Part shown: positions 1,402 through 43,867 of the stretch, piece by piece | Layout of the letters: every line of letters starts with the position of its first letter | Position numbering within the stretch: the stretch's first letter is position 1 | From: Pseudoflavonifractor phocaeensis | Lineage (GTDB): Bacteria > Bacillota > Clostridia > Oscillospirales > Oscillospiraceae | Reading direction: 5' to 3' | DNA length: 59,260 bases | Assembly (NCBI RefSeq): GCF_021531375.1 | Contig: NZ_JADYTU010000011.1 | Location: 1-59,260, forward strand | Position numbers and translations under genes: made by a program | Notes under the pieces: generated by a model | Told to the model about the DNA's origin: nothing | Seen by the model: only the letters and a program-made list of their open reading frames with translations | Database searches by the model: none

Positions 1402-2085
1402 TCAGCCCTTCTCCAGGAATTCCAGTACCAGGCTGTTGAATTTCTCCGGGTCCTTCCGGGCCAGGAAGTGGTCTCCCGGCAGAATAGCCAGCCGTGCGCT
1501 TGGGATGGGCGCGGCGATGGCACGGGTGTGGGACTCCAGGATCATGTCCTTCTCTCCCGCCACCACCAGAGTAGGCATCCGCAGGCTCCGCAGAGACAGG
1601 GGATCAATATGGGGCTGGGTGACCATCAGGTCCACCATCTCAAAGTCCGCCTGCTTCTTGGGGTCCGCCTTGCCCACGGCCTTGAGCCAGGTCCATTTCG
1701 CCTTGTCCGCCAGACGGACGCTCCGCTTCAACCCGTCAGGTTCCAGATTGGCTCCGTTCAGGATCAGTTTCTCCACATATTGGGGGTATTTCAGCGCGAA
1801 GATCAGGGCGATATTGCCCCCGTCGGAAAAGCCCAGCAGATGGCACCGGCAGATCCCCAGTCCGTCCAGGAACTCCTTCAGGTCCTCGGCAAACTGCTCC
1901 AGAGTAAAGGGTTCCTCTCCCCGGGGAGACTTGCCGTGGCCCCGGGTGTCCGGGGCAATGACCCGGTAATGGGCGGAAAAGGGGCTCATCTGATGCTCAA
2001 AATAGGTGTGGTCCTCCCCGTTTCCGTGGAGCAGCACCAGGGGAAAGCCCTCCCCCGCCTCAACATAATTCAGTGTAATGTCCAT
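1402..2085 (-). CDS. alpha/beta-fold hydrolase
   Basis: A 227-residue single-domain alpha/beta hydrolase. The oxyanion motif HGNG is at residue 20, the nucleophile elbow GFSDGG puts the catalytic serine at 87, an acidic residue follows in GEKDM, and the histidine is in GDHF near residue 206. It is close to small esterase and C-C hydrolase families, but the substrate is not evident. It starts 65 bp after the addB stop codon with a GAGGGA site, and the kinase gene follows 43 bp downstream, so all may belong to one minus-strand transcript. Confidence 0.85.
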   Translation of the reverse strand: MDITLNYVEAGEGFPLVLLHGNGEDHTYFEHQMSPFSAHYRVIAPDTRGHGKSPRGEEPFTLEQFAEDLKEFLDGLGICRCHLLGFSDGGNIALIFALKYPQYVEKLILNGANLEPDGLKRSVRLADKAKWTWLKAVGKADPKKQADFEMVDLMVTQPHIDPLSLRSLRMPTLVVAGEKDMILESHTRAIAAPIPSARLAILPGDHFLARKDPEKFNSLVLEFLEKG

Positions 2086-2150
2086 ATCGGTCCCTCACAG
2101 TTCCTATGCCCCACCGGGGCAGTATCTTGATCGCGTGCAGCGCACGGCGT

Positions 2151-5100
2151 TCATTCCTCTTGCTCCACATTCTCCCAGAACTCCTGCGCGCCCACCGAGG
2201 GCAGCCAGCGCCGGCAGTCCCCGCCCCGGCCCTCCTCAAAGTGGCAGGCGGCGGCATAGTCGCAGTAACGGCAGGCGTTCTTCTCCGGCCCACGCCAGAA
2301 GGGGTCGGCGGAGATATCCCCCCGGGCAAGCTCCCGGCAGATCTCCTCCAGCACGGTCTGGATGTGGCGGCCCAGCTTTCCCAGCTGCTCCGCCGTAGCC
2401 AGTGCCTCCCCGGAGATGGCGCCGGTGGACTTGGACACCCGCAGGGGCAGAAAGCGGTAGCCGCCTTCTCCCGCCGGCTCCATCGCGTCCAGCACCGTCC
2501 GGTCATTGAGGACCAGCCCGCTGCGCCGCAGCTCCTTGTCCAGCGCCTTGCGCCAGGCCTCGTCGCTCATGGCCCGGCTGCCCCGGACCACCGCGTCCCG
2601 GGCGGGGAGGTAGAGCACCCCGGCCCCCTCCACGGGCAGGCCGTAAAGGTTTTCTCCTTTTTCCTCCAGGGTAAACAGGTACAGAAGCATCTGGAGTCCC
2701 AGGCCGTTCCACACCTCGGTGAGGTCAAAGGATTTTCGGCCCGTCTTATAATCCACCACCCGCAGATACAGCCTGCCGTCGTGGACCCAGCCGTCCACCC
2801 GGTCCACAAAACCGGAGACGCTGATGGTCACATCGTCCACCGTCAGTTCTACGGGGGGCAGATCCTCATTGCGTCCGAAGCCCAGCTCGAAGGAGATGGG
2901 CCTGAACCGGGAATCCATCAGCTCCTCGGCCACATTGTCCACCACCGCCTGGACGGACCGCAGCAGACGGCGGAACAGGTACCGGAAGCGGTCGGACTGG
3001 CCCTCCAGGCCGCCCAGCTCCTCCGACACATAGCGGTCCACCGCCTCCTGGGTCAGCCGGCGCAGCCGCTTTTTCCGGTCCTCCCCGGCCAGCTCCTCCA
3101 TGCCGGGCAGGGCCGTCTGGCGGAACATCTCATCCTGGAGGACGTGCTCCAGCACATAGTGGACAAAGGTCCCGTATTCCGGTGCTGTAAAGCCGGCAGG
3201 CTTGCGGGGCTCCGCCTTCAGGCCGTAGCGCATAAAGTAGGAAAAATGGCAGGATTTATACTTGTCCATCCGGGAGGCGGACATGGGCACCCGCTTCCCG
3301 TACAGCCGGTCCACCGCCGGCCGGGACAGGCTGCCCCGCTCCCAGCGGGAGGCCCGGAGCAGACGCTCCACCTGGCGGGCGTATTCCGGCAAGCCCTCCA
3401 GGACCCGGCGGGCGGCTGGGTCCCGCCCCGCCTGCTCCAGGGCGGGCAGAGGGGCCTCCAGACGGAAGGAGCCGCCCAGGTCTCCCTCCCGCCGCACCCG
3501 GAGACCGGTGAACAGCAGTTTGAGCCGTTCCGCCAAGAAGCTGGGGCGGCGCTCCTCGCCCCCGGGGCCCTGGGCGGACCAGGACACCAACAGCCGCTGG
3601 CTGGGCCGGGAGCAGGTCAGGTATACGGTGGTCATCTCCCGGTACAGCAGGTCCCGGGCGGAGCTGTTCAGCTCCAGGCCGTAGACCGCCAGGAGAGACC
3701 GGTCGTCGTCGGACAGCAGGCCCGGGGAGCTCCCCACCTTGGGAATAGAGGCGTCGTCCGCCCCCAGCAGGATCAGAGCCTTGACCCGGTGTCCGGTCTG
3801 GCGGGTGGTCTCCCCCGCCGTCACCCGGTCCAGCGAGACGGGGATGGTGCCCACGTCGTACTGGGACAGCACCAGCCGAAACAGAAGGGCAAATTCCTCC
3901 AGCTCCATGGGTGTGTCCCCCAACAGGGCCGCGCACTGCTCCAGCCCTCCGCACAAAATCTCCCACAGTTGGCGGTATTCATCGGCCAGGGCGGGCTGTC
4001 CCCGTCGTCCCAGCTCCTCCACACGCTCTTCCAGCCGGTCGGGCAGCCCGATGGCCTCCATAAATGTGTAAAGGGCAACCGCCTGTCCCTTTCCTGTTTT
4101 CAAGGGATTTTTCCGCAAAAGCTCCAGCGGCTCCGACACGCTCCGCCGCGCCCGGTCCAGCCGGTCCAGCAGGGCTTTATCTTCCTCCTCCAGAGGAAAG
4201 CCATAGCCCCTGGGATGCCAGTTCCAGGCCTTGGCCTGGGTCCACCGGCTGCCCCGGATGTCCCACTTCAGCACATAGTTTTCCAGCAGGTCCCGGTCCT
4301 CCTCAGGCAGGTCGGTGAGGCCGGTCTTGAGGTAACGGAACACGTCCTCGTAGGCGTAGCCCCCCGCCACCGTATCCAGCGCGGCGGTGACCAGGGCCAG
4401 CACCGGTTTTTCCAGGATATCCGTCATCACCGAGGAAAACACCGGGACCCCATACCGGGGGAACACCGACTCCACCAGGTCCCGGTACTCCCCGTAATTC
4501 CGGGCCACCACACCGATATCCCGGAAGCGCAGCCCCTCCTCCCGGGTCATTTGGAGGATACGCGCCGCCGCCCACTCCACCTCGGACCGTGGGCCGCCGG
4601 CCTGGAACAGTTCTACCGAGCCGCCAGAGTCCACCGGATCGGTCTCCCCGCGGGCAAAGAGATTCTCTTCCAGAAATTTCAGTGCCTCCGCTTTTCTGGA
4701 ACAATCGCTGACAAGGTGTTCCACCTCACAGGACGCCCCCGCTTTTTTGGCCAGCCGGATCAGCCAGGCCGCCGTCTTTCGGGCAGGCGAGAAGATGCCG
4801 GTCCCCCCCTCGTCTTCCTCCAGACGGTCGCAGGTAAGGGTCACGTTCACCGTCTCCGCCTGGGCCAGCAGTCTGCGGAGGACCTCCCCCTGCTGGGGGG
4901 TAAAGTCGGTAAAGCCGTCCAGCCACAGGTCCTTTCCCTTGGCCCAGAGGCAACTGTCCAATTTCTCCGCCGCCCGGGTCAGCCGGTCCCGGGGGTCTAG
5001 CGCTACGTGGGCGGTCAGGGCGTCATAGGCCCCGCAGATCAGCCCCAAGTCCCGCAGCTTGTCTCCCTCGGGACCACCCGTCTCCCGGCCGGCGGTGATG

Positions 5101-39370: not shown

Positions 39371-40699
39371 TTACTCCTCGATCTCTCCGGTCAGGTCGCC
39401 GTCGGAGACGCCGGTGATCCGCACGTTGACGAACTCCCCGGCCGGCACCAGCCCGGCGGCGGTGAACAGCACCCGGCCGTCGATGTCCACCGAGTCGGCG
39501 TAGGTCCGGCCCACATAGCAGCCCTCAGCGCTGTCAAAGCCTTCGCACAGCACCTCCATGACGGTGCCCAGCCGCTCCTCGTTGTAGGCGTCCATGATCC
39601 GGGACTGGAGGTCCACCACCAGCTCTACCCTGCGCTGGGCGGTCTCCGGGTCCACCTGGTCCTCCATGGCGGCGGCCAGGGTGCCCTCCTCAGGGGAGAA
39701 CTGGAACACGCCCACCCGCTGGAGCTTCTGCTCCCGCAGGAACGCGCACAGCTCCTCGAATTCCGCTTCTCCCTCCCCAGGCAGGCCGCAGATCAGAGAG
39801 GTGCGGATCACCACGTCGGGCAGCGCGGCCCGCAGGCGGGCAAAGAGGACCTCCAGCTCCGCCCGGGTATTGCGGCGGCGCATGGCTTTCAGGATACCGT
39901 CGTTGCAGTGCTGAATGGGGATGTCCAGATAGTGGACGATCTTGGGCTGACGGGCGATGGTCTGGATCAGCTCGTCGGTGATGGCCTCGGGATAGAGGTA
40001 GTGCAGGCGGACCCAGTGGAAGGGCAGCTTGCACAGCTCGTTCAGCAGCCCCGCCAACGTGCTGCCGTCCTGGAGGTCCAGACCGTACCGGGTGATATCC
40101 TGGGCGATGACAATGAGTTCCTTCACCCCGGAGTCGGCCAGCTTTCCGGCCTCGGCCAGCAGGGCCTCCATGGACCGGCTGCGGTAACGGCCCCGCAGCT
40201 TGGGGATGATGCAGAAAGCGCAGCCGTTGCTGCAGCCCTCGGCGATCTTCAGATAGGCGGTGTAGGGCGGGGTGGTGACCAGCCGCTCTCCGTCCTCATA
40301 GGTCTTATGGATGTTGCCGAAGTGCTCGGCCTTCTCCCCCGCCATCAGTTCCTCCACGGCGGACACCACGTCAGTGTAGCTGCCGGTACCCAGCATCCCG
40401 TCCACCTCGGGCAGTTCGGTGCGGATATCGTCGGGATAGCGCTGGGTCAGGCAGCCGGTGACCAGCAGCTTTTTCAGCTTGCCCTGGTCCTTCAGCTGGG
40501 CCAGTTCCAGAATATTGTCGATGGCCTCGCTCTTGGCCGACTCGATGAAGCCGCAGGTGTTCAGTACCGCCACGTCGGCCCCCTCGGGGTCTCCGGTGAC
40601 AAGGTATCCCGCCTTACGGCACAGTGCCATCATCTGCTCGGTGTTCACCAGGTTTTTGGCACAGCCGAGGGAGACAAAGGCAACTTTGTATTGGTTCAA
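39371..40699 (-). CDS. rimO: ribosomal protein S12 methylthiotransferase RimO
   Basis: Radical-SAM enzyme that methylthiolates Asp of S12. 442 residues. The N-terminal UPF0004 domain has C13, C49 and C83; the radical SAM cysteines are C156-x3-C160-x2-C163 in GCSNGCAFC, and a TRAM domain ends the protein. The family name RimO rather than MiaB fits its length and the LGCAKNLVN start. The TTG at 40699 is chosen since GGGAG is 8 nt upstream; the GTG at 40708 would sit on that site. Confidence 0.92.
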   Translation of the reverse strand: MNQYKVAFVSLGCAKNLVNTEQMMALCRKAGYLVTGDPEGADVAVLNTCGFIESAKSEAIDNILELAQLKDQGKLKKLLVTGCLTQRYPDDIRTELPEVDGMLGTGSYTDVVSAVEELMAGEKAEHFGNIHKTYEDGERLVTTPPYTAYLKIAEGCSNGCAFCIIPKLRGRYRSRSMEALLAEAGKLADSGVKELIVIAQDITRYGLDLQDGSTLAGLLNELCKLPFHWVRLHYLYPEAITDELIQTIARQPKIVHYLDIPIQHCNDGILKAMRRRNTRAELEVLFARLRAALPDVVIRTSLICGLPGEGEAEFEELCAFLREQKLQRVGVFQFSPEEGTLAAAMEDQVDPETAQRRVELVVDLQSRIMDAYNEERLGTVMEVLCEGFDSAEGCYVGRTYADSVDIDGRVLFTAAGLVPAGEFVNVRITGVSDGDLTGEIEE

Positions 40700-40704
40700 A
40701 GAGA

Positions 40705-41066
40705 TCACTCCCTTAATGGTTTCATGTAATTTAAAATATGCTCACAGACGCCCCGAAAATTTTGATCCACCTCCAGGTTGGAAACGCGCAGGACCTTTAC
40801 ACCCAACCGCTCCAGATCTCCGGTTCTTCGGGCGTCATACGCCTGCCCTTGGGGTTCAAAATGCTGGCCGCCGTCCAGTTCCACGGCCAGACGAAGCGCG
40901 GGACAGTAAAAGTTCACATATAGTCTCCAATGGGTTTCTGACGCAAAAAGCGGGGCTTTTGTTCCCGGAGGAATTCGTACCACAGCTTGCGCTCCCAGGG
41001 AGTCATGTTTTTTCTGAGTTCGCGGGCCGGCCTTTGCAGGGAATTTTTATAGGGTACGATTGCCAT
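40705..41066 (-). pseudogene. DUF559 endonuclease-like gene with frameshift
   Basis: Two frames together make one DUF559 (vsr-like restriction fold) protein. The first, from the ATG at 41066 with AGGAGG upstream, runs MAIVPYKNSL ... RQKPIGDY and then hits TGA. The second continues at once with NFYCPALRLAVELDGGQHFE and ends NYMKPLRE. The family normally reads GxYIVDFYC at this point, so one base is missing near 40917-40922 (TATATGTG). It is either a real -1 frameshift or a sequencing error. The gene ends 5 bp before rimO. Confidence 0.85.
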
Positions 41067-41109
41067 ACGATCCCCTCCTACTCCTGTTACTGCCCGTTCG
41101 GATGGGCTC

Positions 41110-41335
41110 CGTGCCGCACTACTTAAGCCCCCTTTCACAAAAGGGGGTGGCCCGAAGGGCCGGGGGATTTTCTTTTCTAATTTTAATACCCGGCAGGGGG
41201 AAAGAGAAAACCCTCAGTCACCGCCTTCGGCGGCGACAGCGTCCCTACCCCCTTTGGCCTTCGGCCATTTCCCCCTGAAAGGGGGAATCGGCCCTTTGCG
41301 AAGGGAGCCTTTGTTCCGCTGCGGCGGGACGGGAG
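41110..41335. repeat. intergenic repeat block with palindromic modules
   Basis: The gap downstream of the XRE gene. It contains a hairpin-rich CCCCCTTTCACAAAAGGGGG module near 41130, a GCCCGAAGGGCC hairpin, and a block with GGCCTTCGGCCATTTCCCCC (about 41245-41291) shared with 49897-49935. No coding potential is apparent on either strand. Confidence 0.65.
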
Positions 41336-41339
41336 CGAT

Positions 41340-41573
41340 TTACTTGCCCCGCCAAACGGGATCGTCGGTGATGCCCAGGAGATAATCAGTGGAGACATGA
41401 AAATAATAAGCCAATTCAACCAATTTATCCACTGTCGTCCCACGGGTACCACTTTCAAGCGTACTGATAGCCTTATGGGACAAGCCAATCGCCTCACCTA
41501 ATTCTTTCTGACTAAGCCCGTTGGCCTTCCGCAGTTGGTAAATTCGCTCACCCAAAACATTCTGCTTATCCAT
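41340..41573 (-). CDS. XRE family transcriptional repressor
   Basis: A 77-residue single HTH protein. The HTH spans about residues 10-60 (LRKANGLSQKELGEAIGLSH), followed by a short tail ending DYLLGITDDPVW, typical of XRE repressors that bind palindromes as dimers. The gene is richer in AT than its neighbours, hinting at acquisition. It has AAGGGGA before the start. It faces away from a DUF6809-like gene across an 86-bp gap holding a 38-bp palindrome, its likely operator. Confidence 0.88.
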   Translation of the reverse strand: MDKQNVLGERIYQLRKANGLSQKELGEAIGLSHKAISTLESGTRGTTVDKLVELAYYFHVSTDYLLGITDDPVWRGK

Positions 41574-41583
41574 ACCAATCCCC

Positions 41584-41612
41584 TTGACTTTTACCTGTAA
41601 GTAGATTATAAT
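41584..41612 (+). promoter_or_regulatory. sigma-A promoter inside the operator
   Basis: TTGACT (41584-41589) and TATAAT (41607-41612), spacer 17 bp, pointing to the DUF6809-like gene. The spacer and -10 box lie inside the palindrome, so bound repressor would block the promoter. Confidence 0.85.
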
Positions 41613-41627
41613 CTACTTACAGGTAAA
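41590..41627. promoter_or_regulatory. 38-bp perfect palindromic operator
   Basis: A perfect inverted repeat with no spacer. The left arm is TTTACCTGTAAGTAGATTA (41590-41608), and the right arm is its exact complement up to 41627. Smaller units CTGTAAG/CTTACAG and GTAGATTATAATCTAC are visible inside. It lies centrally between the two divergent starts. There is no T-run after the stem and no GC-rich base, so it is an operator rather than a terminator. Confidence 0.85.
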
Positions 41628-41659
41628 TTTTGAGTGCATATCACATTGGGAGGCAGATT

Positions 41660-41923
41660 ATGTTTGATTACATTTCCGCCATTTACTACGGCGAAGGCTT
41701 CGGCGCCTGCCGCCCCTGTCCCCTGGACCAGCCGGCCGACCAGAGGGAACGGGAGCTAAACAAGCAGCTGGACCGTGTTGCCGATACGCTGGGGGAGGAT
41801 TTTGTCAAAACGCTGCGGGGCAATCTGCGGGTCATTCTGAACGGCCGCCAGCTGGAGGCTTTCCAGGACGGCGTACGCATGGGCGGCCAGCTGACCGCCT
41901 CCATTTTGCTGGACCCTCAATAG
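41660..41923 (+). CDS. DUF6809-like small protein
   Basis: An 87-residue, mostly helical protein. The start MFDYISAIYYGEG and the end FQDGVRMGGQLTASIL match by eye the DUF6809 family, found in Clostridia and their mobile elements, with unknown function. The ATG at 41660 has GGGAGG 6 nt upstream. It is controlled by the promoter/palindrome unit shared with the XRE gene, and its last 7 nt overlap the end of recX on the other strand. Confidence 0.7.
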   Translation: MFDYISAIYYGEGFGACRPCPLDQPADQRERELNKQLDRVADTLGEDFVKTLRGNLRVILNGRQLEAFQDGVRMGGQLTASILLDPQ

Positions 41924-42540
41924 TCCTCCCCGGTCTCGGCCCCGTAGCGCCGCAGGGCGTCGTTGATGTCCGACCAGGAATAGCCCCGGCGGGCCAGGGC
42001 GGCGGACACCTTTTGCATCTGCTTTCGGTCCAGGTCCTTTCCCGCCAGCTTTTTGGTCACAAAGGCGTCGATGGCCTCGGCGGGGTCCTGAGCCTGCTCC
42101 AGGGCGTCGTCCCACATTTCCCTGGGAACTCCCCGGCGGTACAGCTCGTCCCGGAGCTTTTTCTCCCCGAACCCCTTGGCAGAGTAGTAGCGGACCACCT
42201 GGGCGGCGTAAGAGGCGTCGTTGAGGTAGCCCAGCTCCTCCATCCGGTCGCATAGGACGGCGGACTCCGCCTCCCCCGCGCCCCACTCCTTCAATTTCCG
42301 CTCCAGTTCCTTTCGGGACTGGGGCTTTCTTGTCAGCAGGTCCAGTGCTTTTTCCTTCAGGCCGCTGCGTCGGACGGAGTCCAACAGAGCCTCCGCCTCC
42401 CGGTCGGTCAGTTCCTTCCCGGCATACAGGGCAAAGTCGATGACCTCGCTCTCCCCCAGGCGCAGGATGGAGCCGTCCTCCAGCACGGCCAGCCATCGGC
42501 CCTCGATCCGTTTGGACGGTTTGAGTTCCTGGATAACCAT
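41917..42540 (-). CDS. recX: regulatory protein RecX
   Basis: Modulates RecA filaments. 207 residues of three-helix repeats; signature segments are LLTRKPQSRKELERKL, LCDRMEELGYLND, YSAKGFGEKKLRDELYRRGV and a terminal repeat RRGYSWSDINDALRRYG. It starts 5 bp after recA with no clear ribosome binding site, so translation probably depends on recA. The 3' end overlaps the convergent DUF6809-like gene by 7 nt. Confidence 0.92.
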   Translation of the reverse strand: MVIQELKPSKRIEGRWLAVLEDGSILRLGESEVIDFALYAGKELTDREAEALLDSVRRSGLKEKALDLLTRKPQSRKELERKLKEWGAGEAESAVLCDRMEELGYLNDASYAAQVVRYYSAKGFGEKKLRDELYRRGVPREMWDDALEQAQDPAEAIDAFVTKKLAGKDLDRKQMQKVSAALARRGYSWSDINDALRRYGAETGEDY

Positions 42541-42545
42541 GGGGC

Positions 42546-43658
42546 TTATTCGTCGGCGCCGTCCTCAAAGTCGTCGGCGGACACGTCCACCGCCCGACCG
42601 GCGGCCCGGGCGGCCACCTGGGACTGCTTGCTCATAAGCTTGAAGGCGTTGGCACGTACCTGGGCCTCCACCTCTTCAGCCACCTCCGGATTGTCCTTCA
42701 GATATTGGCGGGCGGCGTCCCGGCCCTGGCCGATCCGCATATCGCCCATGGCGAACCAGGAGCCCGACTTCTGGATGATATCCAGCTTCACGGCCAGATC
42801 CACCAGCTCGCCCCACTTGGAGATGCCCTCGCCGTAGAGGATCTCGAACTCCGCCTCCCGGAAGGGGGGCGCCACCTTGTTCTTCACGATCTTGGCCCGG
42901 GTGCGGTTGCCCACCACCTCGCCGCCCACCTTGATGGCCTCGATGCGGCGCACATCAATGCGGACAGAGGAATAGAACTTCAGCGCCCGGCCGCCGGTGG
43001 TCACCTCGGGGTTGCCGTACATGACGCCCACCTTTTCCCGGAGCTGGTTGATGAAGATGACGATACAGTTGGTCTTGGCAATGGAGCCGGCCAGCTTCCG
43101 CAGGGCCTGGCTCATCAGCCGGGCCAGCAGGCCCACATGGGAGTCGCCCATGTCGCCCTCGATCTCCGCCCGGGGAGTCAGAGCGGCCACCGAGTCCACT
43201 ACCACCACGTCGATGGCGCCGGAACGGACCAGAGCCTCACAGATCTCCAGTCCCTGTTCACCGGTATCGGGCTGGGAGATGAGCATGGAGTCGATATCCA
43301 CGCCCAAAGCCCGGGCGTAGCTGGGGTCCAGGGCGTGCTCGGCGTCGATGAAAGCCACCTCGCCTCCCCGCTTCTGGGCCTCCGCCAGAATGTGGAGGGC
43401 CAGCGTGGTCTTACCGGAAGACTCGGGGCCGTAGATCTCGATGATGCGGCCCTTGGGGACGCCGCCGATACCCAAGGCGATGTCCAGCGACAGAGAACCG
43501 GTTGGGATGGACTCCACCACGATGCCCGTGTTCTCCCCCAAACGCATGATAGAGCCCTTTCCGTAGGCCCGCTCGATCTGGGCCATGCAGGTCTCGATGG
43601 CTTTCTTCTTATCAGACGCGGGGGACGCCGCCTCCACGGAGGGCTTTTTTGTTGCCAT
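42546..43658 (-). CDS. recA: recombinase RecA
   Basis: Central strand-exchange protein. 370 residues; Walker A GPESSGKT at 77-84, [20 protein letters not shown]-type loop region further on, and the usual acidic C-terminus (DDFEDGADE). The second ATG (43658) is chosen because AAAGGA lies 9 nt from it but 3 nt from the first. The N-terminus has a lysine-rich extension. No canonical LexA box is visible in the 209-bp upstream gap. recX follows directly. Confidence 0.97.
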
Positions 43659-43867
43659 AACCATTCGTCCTTTCCAGCGCCGCCTATCCGGCGCGTCTTT
43701 GGTTTTCGTCCTTAGTTTATCATATTCGTTGTCCCATAAAACGGACTTTTAATCGTGAGACATATGCCGCCTCAGGCAGCGGGGGCACCCCCCTGTCAAG
43801 TCAATCAACATTGAGACGGACACGACAGGCCGTGGCACCGCCCAACATGTTATGTCAGCCGCAATTC

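What the first reader, a model, noticed from the sequence alone, without database searches (positions are those of the whole stretch)
41584..41660. 38-bp perfect palindrome with the promoter inside, between an XRE repressor and a DUF6809-like gene
The palindrome covers the whole 17-bp spacer and -10 of a near-consensus promoter reading into the small gene. Such a long spacer-free operator with nested units (CTGTAAG/CTTACAG) hints at cooperative binding and a tight switch. The two genes look like a self-contained module of foreign origin, inserted at recX and beside a broken DUF559 gene.
Basis: partly seen in the sequence, partly recalled or inferred. Interest (0 to 1): 0.75.

Follow-up and report, generated by a model that had tools for sequence, protein, structure and literature searches.

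The report
Repressor-controlled switch nested in housekeeping operon
A perfectly mirrored 38-letter DNA site lies over a strong-looking promoter between a small repressor gene and a small gene of unknown function, and the same layout recurs inside housekeeping operons of related bacteria, which suggests an undescribed class of built-in genetic switches.

Summary
Confirmed: 41590-41627 is a gapless perfect 38-bp palindrome covering the 17-bp spacer and the -10 of a TTGACT-17-TATAAT promoter that reads into an 87-aa gene; 100 Markov copies of the window never exceed an 11-bp arm (here 19). Best reading: a double operator, two 16-bp sites 22 bp apart, for the adjacent 77-aa XRE repressor. The window's and ten relatives' operators share the register; 8 of 19 mirror pairs changed on both sides (0 of 500 shuffles reach this). 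The layout recurs: 37 of 72 single-domain XREs surveyed have a TTGACA/TATAAT-like promoter facing away at a near-fixed distance (about 1 expected), some with two separate palindromes around the -10, most with a divergent small ORF, often DUF6809-like. Such modules sit in housekeeping operons (recX-rimO, infB-rbfA, mutL-miaA, trmFO-plsX, topA-trmFO) with XRE co-directional. No full-strength XRE promoter and no terminator was found, so read-through may supply the repressor; weak XRE-ward promoter-like scores are commoner than chance, against this. 'Foreign insert at recX' is partly right: the same junction is occupied in other genera, empty in two same-genus genomes. The window gene is below Pfam's DUF6809 cut-off. 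Binding, repression and function are untested.

The parts
41590..41627 (.). 38-bp perfect palindrome = proposed double operator
41590..41605 (.). proposed operator site in the -35/-10 spacer: TTTACCT-NN-AAGTAGA
   Evidence: information dips at arm positions 8 and 17
41612..41627 (.). proposed operator site starting at the last base of the -10: TCTACTT-NN-AGGTAAA; site centres 22 bp apart
41584..41589 (+). -35 TTGACT; overlaps the presumed XRE ribosome-binding site (AAGGGG, 41580-41585, - strand) by 2 bp
41607..41612 (+). -10 TATAAT at the palindrome axis
41660..41923 (+). 87-aa small gene, DUF6809-like, tail motif FxxGxRxG; antisense to the operon, its end overlaps recX by 7 bp
41340..41573 (-). 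77-aa XRE (HTH_3) protein, proposed repressor, co-directional with recA-recX and rimO-pgsA
41917..42540 (-). recX, upstream operon partner
42546..43664 (-). recA (named from sequence; used as query)
39371..40708 (-). rimO, downstream operon partner (named from sequence)
40705..41138 (-). DUF559 gene in two frames, between XRE and rimO; local, not part of the module

Best explanation
The palindrome is a double operator. Two dimers of the neighbouring XRE protein bind side by side on it, one in the -35/-10 spacer and one just past the -10, and so keep the strong-looking promoter of the small DUF6809-type gene shut. The XRE gene has no full-strength promoter of its own that I could find and lies in line with recA-recX and rimO-pgsA, so its message probably comes largely from read-through of the housekeeping operon, perhaps with a weak start inside the palindrome. 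The small gene is then expressed when repressor supply or activity falls, and its transcript runs convergently into the end of recX. Shown: anatomy, conserved register, mirror covariation, recurrence, orientation, and consensus scans. Inferred: binding, repression, cooperativity, read-through supply, and any action of the small protein.
For: Perfect palindrome over spacer and -10. A half-site pattern scan of genome contigs returned 3 stretches, all three between an XRE of this type and a divergent small ORF. 37 of 72 surveyed single-domain XREs have an away-facing promoter at near-fixed distance (34 of 69 without the loci found by the operator pattern; shuffles mean 0.87, maximum 5; with the ribosome-binding region kept, mean 1.07, maximum 5). 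In the XRE direction 0 of 37 reach 10 of 12. No minus-strand terminator and no minus-strand promoter-like site lies between recX and XRE; XRE-sense terminator-like sites lie within 330 nt upstream in 2 of 36 class loci, shuffles 4%. Upstream gene co-directional in 33 of 34, downstream in 29 of 31 loci where one was called.
Against: No binding or expression data. In the XRE direction 14 of 37 class loci reach 9 of 12, against 12.8% of shuffles (about 5 expected; mean 7.97 against 7.49): some of this follows from the symmetric -10, but a weak own promoter is quite possible. The generic two-dyad model reached p<=0.05 in only 16 of 37 class loci, partly for lack of power; L007 has a perfect 38-mer but weak dyads inside the arms. 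Co-orientation is also common for XREs outside the class (19 of 24 upstream, 24 of 30 downstream). Class loci are not independent (near-identical pairs such as L010/L068 and L130/L131), were chosen by similarity to the window XRE, and L037:7455 is probably a false member.
Confidence: 0.62

Rival explanations
1. Ordinary bidirectional lambda-like operator: XRE has its own promoter in the palindrome (symmetric TATAAT, 41605-41610 on the minus strand) and simply represses both directions; the host operon is irrelevant.
For: The palindrome gives a -10 on both strands. XRE-ward scores of 9 of 12 are about three times commoner than in shuffles (14 of 37 against 12.8%). Autoregulation is common for XRE repressors (recalled).
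Against: No promoter-like site in the XRE direction between recX and XRE in the window and none of 37 class loci reaches 10 of 12; XRE lies in line with the genes on both sides in nearly all class loci where they were called.
Confidence: 0.3
2. Toxin-antitoxin-like addiction pair: the small protein is harmful and XRE is its transcriptional guard. This could be true together with the best explanation.
For: Small two-gene unit, patchy occurrence (4 of 38 recX-rimO junctions seen among the RecA-ranked genomes), lower GC of XRE than its locus in 37 of 37 class loci.
Against: No known toxin family among matches of the small protein in Pfam, PHROGs, NCBIfam or PADLOC; XREs outside the class also have lower GC than their locus (28 of 33); a divergent layout is not the usual co-transcribed TA order (recalled).
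Confidence: 0.2
3. The palindrome works as RNA: a hairpin, terminator or attenuator in the read-through message ahead of XRE.
For: The minus-strand RNA folds at -34.1 kcal/mol, z -5.3; mirror covariation would look the same for RNA.
Against: No U-run follows it on the XRE strand (one search lists it as terminator-like only for the plus strand, where the transcript would start inside it); some distant relatives have two separate dyads around the -10; its position relative to -35 and -10 is fixed.
Confidence: 0.08
4. The palindrome is a mobile-element end or repeat.
For: Patchy presence at the recX-rimO junction.
Against: Single copy in the genome at up to 3 mismatches; the pattern-scan hits all lie beside an XRE; no integrase or transposase among the neighbours read by eye.
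Confidence: 0.02

Closest known systems
R-M controller proteins C.Esp1396I and C.Csp231I
   Same: Small HTH proteins with two palindromic sites, each taking a dimer: two dimers on a 35-bp operator for C.Esp1396I (PMC4041747, passages); CTAAG-N5-CTTAG sites, 15 bp each, for C.Csp231I (PMC4321490, passages), much like the 15-bp sites of L018 and L137.
   Different: No restriction-modification pair among the neighbours (a DUF559 remnant apart); both sites lie where repression is expected; C.Csp231I sites are 18 bp apart edge to edge, here 6 bp.
ICEBs1 ImmR and phage CI-type repressors
   Same: HTH_3 fold; PDB 7t8i (ICEBs1 XRE regulator) matches at E 1.2e-7; the best PDB sequence match is 3op9 (Pli0006, E 1.3e-8). 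Divergent promoters under repressor control (recalled).
   Different: No ImmA-like protease and no element seen beside it; sits between recX and rimO; no full-strength XRE-ward promoter found.
CBASS regulator CapH
   Same: Best PADLOC match of the XRE (46.5 bits, E 1.5e-12).
   Different: No CapP or CBASS genes seen beside it; the match covers the HTH domain, which many XREs share.
DUF6809 (PF20648)
   Same: Full-length weak match (15.1 bits); tail motif FxxGxRxG; 4 of 10 divergent partners of related XREs that I scanned pass the cut-off, and two strong DUF6809 genes (72.3 and 71.7 bits) are divergent from an XRE (L120, L121).
   Different: The window protein is below the cut-off of 27; none of 30 top-scoring DUF6809 loci (one per genome) showed an XRE of this type within the up to 1.5 kb held on each side.

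Membership tests
XRE / HTH_3 regulators (PF01381) | HTH_3 domain over curated cut-off | tested here: met
   51.3 bits, cut-off 23
DUF6809 (PF20648) | score over curated cut-off for the window protein | tested here: not met
   15.1 bits, cut-off 27; of 10 partner proteins of related modules, chosen by me, 4 pass, 4 score 21-25, 2 have no match
RstR family repressors (NF041951) | score over curated cut-off | tested here: not met
   51.8 bits, cut-off 80
R-M controller proteins | linked restriction-modification genes | tested here: not met
   neighbours are recX, a DUF559 remnant and rimO
R-M controller proteins | two dimers bound cooperatively on a double operator | not testable with these tools
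   needs gel shift or structure
ImmR/ImmA-type control | partner ImmA protease gene | tested here: not met
   no such ORF among the neighbours, judged by eye and by five Pfam scans
Type II toxin-antitoxin | partner of a known toxin family | tested here: not met
   no toxin family matched by the small protein
Type II toxin-antitoxin | toxicity of one partner neutralised by the other | not testable with these tools
   needs expression assay

The most novel reading that the evidence does not exclude
An undescribed, recurrent class of repressors nested in housekeeping operons without a strong promoter of their own: host-operon read-through supplies XRE, XRE shuts a near-consensus promoter of a divergent DUF6809-type gene through a double operator, and when that promoter opens its transcription collides with the operon and cuts read-through to XRE. 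Repressor and collision together would make a two-state toggle that senses transcription of recA-recX, infB, mutL, topA and the like, for example an alarm for failing or hijacked host transcription.
Probability: 0.2. Interest if true: 0.82.

Novelty: new variant of a known kind. Interest (0 to 1): 0.62.

Why it matters
HTH repressors on double operators are well known (recalled), but a recurrent set of them placed inside housekeeping operons, with no full-strength promoter of their own and a divergent gene of unknown function, did not turn up in the few word searches made. If the read-through reading holds, these modules would be natural sensors of housekeeping transcription, and they give DUF6809, which no paper of the held library names, a first testable context.

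Tried and rejected
Palindrome as mobile-element end: rejected, single copy. Palindrome as terminator for XRE read-through: rejected, no U-run on that strand. Exact half-site pattern in viral contigs: none. Module DNA in phages and the small protein in plasmids: no match. Small protein against PDB sequences: two matches at E 0.25 only. AlphaFold2: window small protein mean pLDDT 62.7 with 4 sequences, not searched further; a canonical DUF6809 from a viral contig, mean pLDDT 79.4, helical hairpin, no Foldseek match in PDB at E <= 10. Viral relatives of XRE (17 loci; 15 of 17 inspected): one (L168) has the TGTCAAGG signature, the others do not. The first guess that the half-sites were TTTAC/GTAGA with N6 spacers was replaced by the 16-bp site reading once information per position was computed. 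The guess that DUF6809 is always XRE-linked was wrong. Eleven recX-rimO gaps were checked for hidden modules: two (L093, L096) hold a nitroreductase-like ORF, named by eye, and none has the away-facing promoter. The paper on RptR (PMC12255303) and the other papers listed, apart from the three named with passages, were seen as listings only.

Full report
OBSERVATION. The palindrome is real and exactly as described: 41590-41627, 19 + 19 bp, no spacer, no mismatch. TTGACT (41584-41589) and TATAAT (41607-41612) stand 17 bp apart, and the palindrome covers the whole spacer and the -10; its axis lies inside the -10. In 100 first-order Markov copies of the window the longest gapless arm averages 8.2 and never exceeds 11. 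The site is single in the genome at up to 3 mismatches.

NEIGHBOURS. XRE (41340-41573, -, 77 aa) is a clear HTH_3 protein. The small gene (41660-41923, +, 87 aa) matches DUF6809 over its length but at 15.1 bits against a cut-off of 27. recX is convergent with it and overlaps its end by 7 bp. Towards rimO lies a DUF559 gene in two frames. The -35 overlaps the presumed XRE ribosome-binding site by 2 bp.

RELATIVES OF THE OPERATOR. Close relatives of the XRE in other genera (78% to about 55% identity) mostly carry the same kind of palindrome at the same place; L007 has a perfect 38-bp palindrome with different letters. Eleven operators that fit the 38-bp register without gaps, the window's included, were aligned. 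Left out: L074 and L073 (a base or two longer), L012 and L008 (no such palindrome seen), L099 (other letters). These are related sequences, two of them (L035, L037) found by the operator pattern itself, so the shuffle count is not a probability. Information per arm position dips at positions 8 and 17, which fits a 16-bp site TTTACCT-NN-AAGTAGA in each arm, centres 22 bp apart, with the -10 in between. L007 fits this inner symmetry poorly.

PATTERN SCAN. TTTAC-N6-GTAGA-N6-TCTAC-N6-GTAAA was sought in genome contigs: 3 stretches, all three between an XRE of this type and a divergent small ORF (one, L036, is the same contig as L006). In viral contigs there was none.

A RECURRENT LAYOUT. I surveyed 72 single-domain XRE entries, 69 of them from the window's family and 3 from the pattern-found loci L035 and L037. 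The family loci were chosen by similarity to the window XRE, not at random. 37 of 72 (34 of 69 in the family) have, on the opposite strand, a -35 with at least 5 of 6 matches to TTGACA and a -10 with at least 4 of 6 to TATAAT, 16-18 bp apart (17 in 30 of 37), with the -35 14-24 bases from the XRE start; shuffles give 0.87 on average, 5 at most, or 1.07 and 5 if the last 12 bases are kept. Some show two distinct palindromes around the -10 with other letters (L080, L137, L019, L016, L133, L156 and, outside the 37, L018); a search for two like dyads reaches p<=0.05 in 16 of 37. In 32 of 37 a divergent ORF of 55-150 aa starts in the right place and in 26 of 37 it has a DUF6809-like tail motif (loosely defined by me), against 17 and 6 of 35 others. 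Of 10 partner proteins that I picked and scanned, 4 pass the DUF6809 cut-off, 4 score 21-25 and 2 do not match. Two strong DUF6809 genes are also divergent from XREs (L120, L121), but 30 other top-scoring DUF6809 loci showed no such XRE nearby. L184 and L185, from another family of the same class, have two like palindromes and the same -35 position, by eye; no divergent ORF of 50 aa or more was listed for them.

WHERE THE MODULES SIT. Gene names here are mine from sequence. The family's common order is recA-recX-rimO-pgsA: recX and rimO were both called in 36 of 38 regions fetched, which I chose mainly from the top of the RecA list of 137 genomes. With the window and G087 that makes 38 junctions; 4 hold the module (window, G087, G082, G071). 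G291 and G045, found through their XRE, hold it too, G045 with a further gene in between. Two same-genus genomes do not (G039, G128); in G039 (RecA 98% identical) recX and rimO are 42 nt apart, and homology with the window stops at the recX stop codon and resumes at the start of rimO. Other modules sit at infB-rbfA, mutL-miaA, mutS-mutL, trmFO-plsX, topA-trmFO, purH-purD, rarA and elsewhere. A tree of 42 XREs shows that place and descent go together (0 of 200 shuffles as low), yet well-supported branches force at least two changes of label for infB-rbfA and for mutL-miaA; the tree has few columns. So modules seem partly inherited in place and partly to arrive anew at the same junctions. The window's DUF559 pieces match none of the other recX-rimO copies.

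HOW XRE IS EXPRESSED. In the XRE direction no class locus of 37 reaches 10 of 12; shuffles do so in 1.5%. But 14 of 37 reach 9 of 12, against 12.8% of shuffles, and the mean is 7.97 against 7.49: a weak own start, helped by the symmetric -10, is quite possible. In the window no minus-strand promoter-like site or terminator lies between recX and XRE; in the class, XRE-sense terminator-like sites lie upstream in 2 of 36, about as in shuffles. The upstream gene is co-directional in 33 of 34 and the downstream in 29 of 31 loci where one was called; outside the class 19 of 24 and 24 of 30, so orientation alone is weak evidence. On balance this favours a good part of supply by read-through.

WHAT THE SMALL PROTEIN IS. 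Predicted helical (low confidence), with a conserved F..G...G tail; no match in PHROGs, NCBIfam or PADLOC, no PDB relative. Canonical DUF6809 models as a helical hairpin without a PDB match. Function: open. Antirepressor, toxin or partner of the operon are all possible.

COMPARISON. It works most like the R-M controller proteins with two dimers on a double operator (PMC4041747 and PMC4321490, passages read), but has no R-M pair beside it. For print: no paper of the held library names DUF6809, and three narrow word searches listed none that appears to describe such modules (listings only). PMC2701414, a survey of toxin-antitoxin pairs, was read in passages; those shown do not mention DUF6809.

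VERDICT. The recurrent layout is the more interesting result.

Noticed in passing
L099 (G071), reverse complement 1484-3064: In this genome the XRE of the recX-rimO module is fused in frame to RimO (526-aa ORF), and a ribbon-helix-helix-like ORF (named by eye) lies between the promoter and the XRE.
   Followed up: partly
window 40705-41138: DUF559 gene split over two reading frames between XRE and rimO.
   Followed up: partly
L093, L096, L078: A nitroreductase-like ORF (named by eye) occupies the same recX-rimO junction, so this junction accepts different genes.
   Followed up: no
L037 7226-7703: Two XRE genes in tandem downstream of one operator.
   Followed up: no
L182 1294-1858: A canonical DUF6809 gene in a viral contig overlaps a second small ORF with a similar tail motif, with a larger XRE gene downstream.
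   Followed up: no
L126 and L156, upstream of XRE: Longer, slightly imperfect or gapped palindromes (47 and 42 bp overall) at the same place relative to the promoter.
   Followed up: partly
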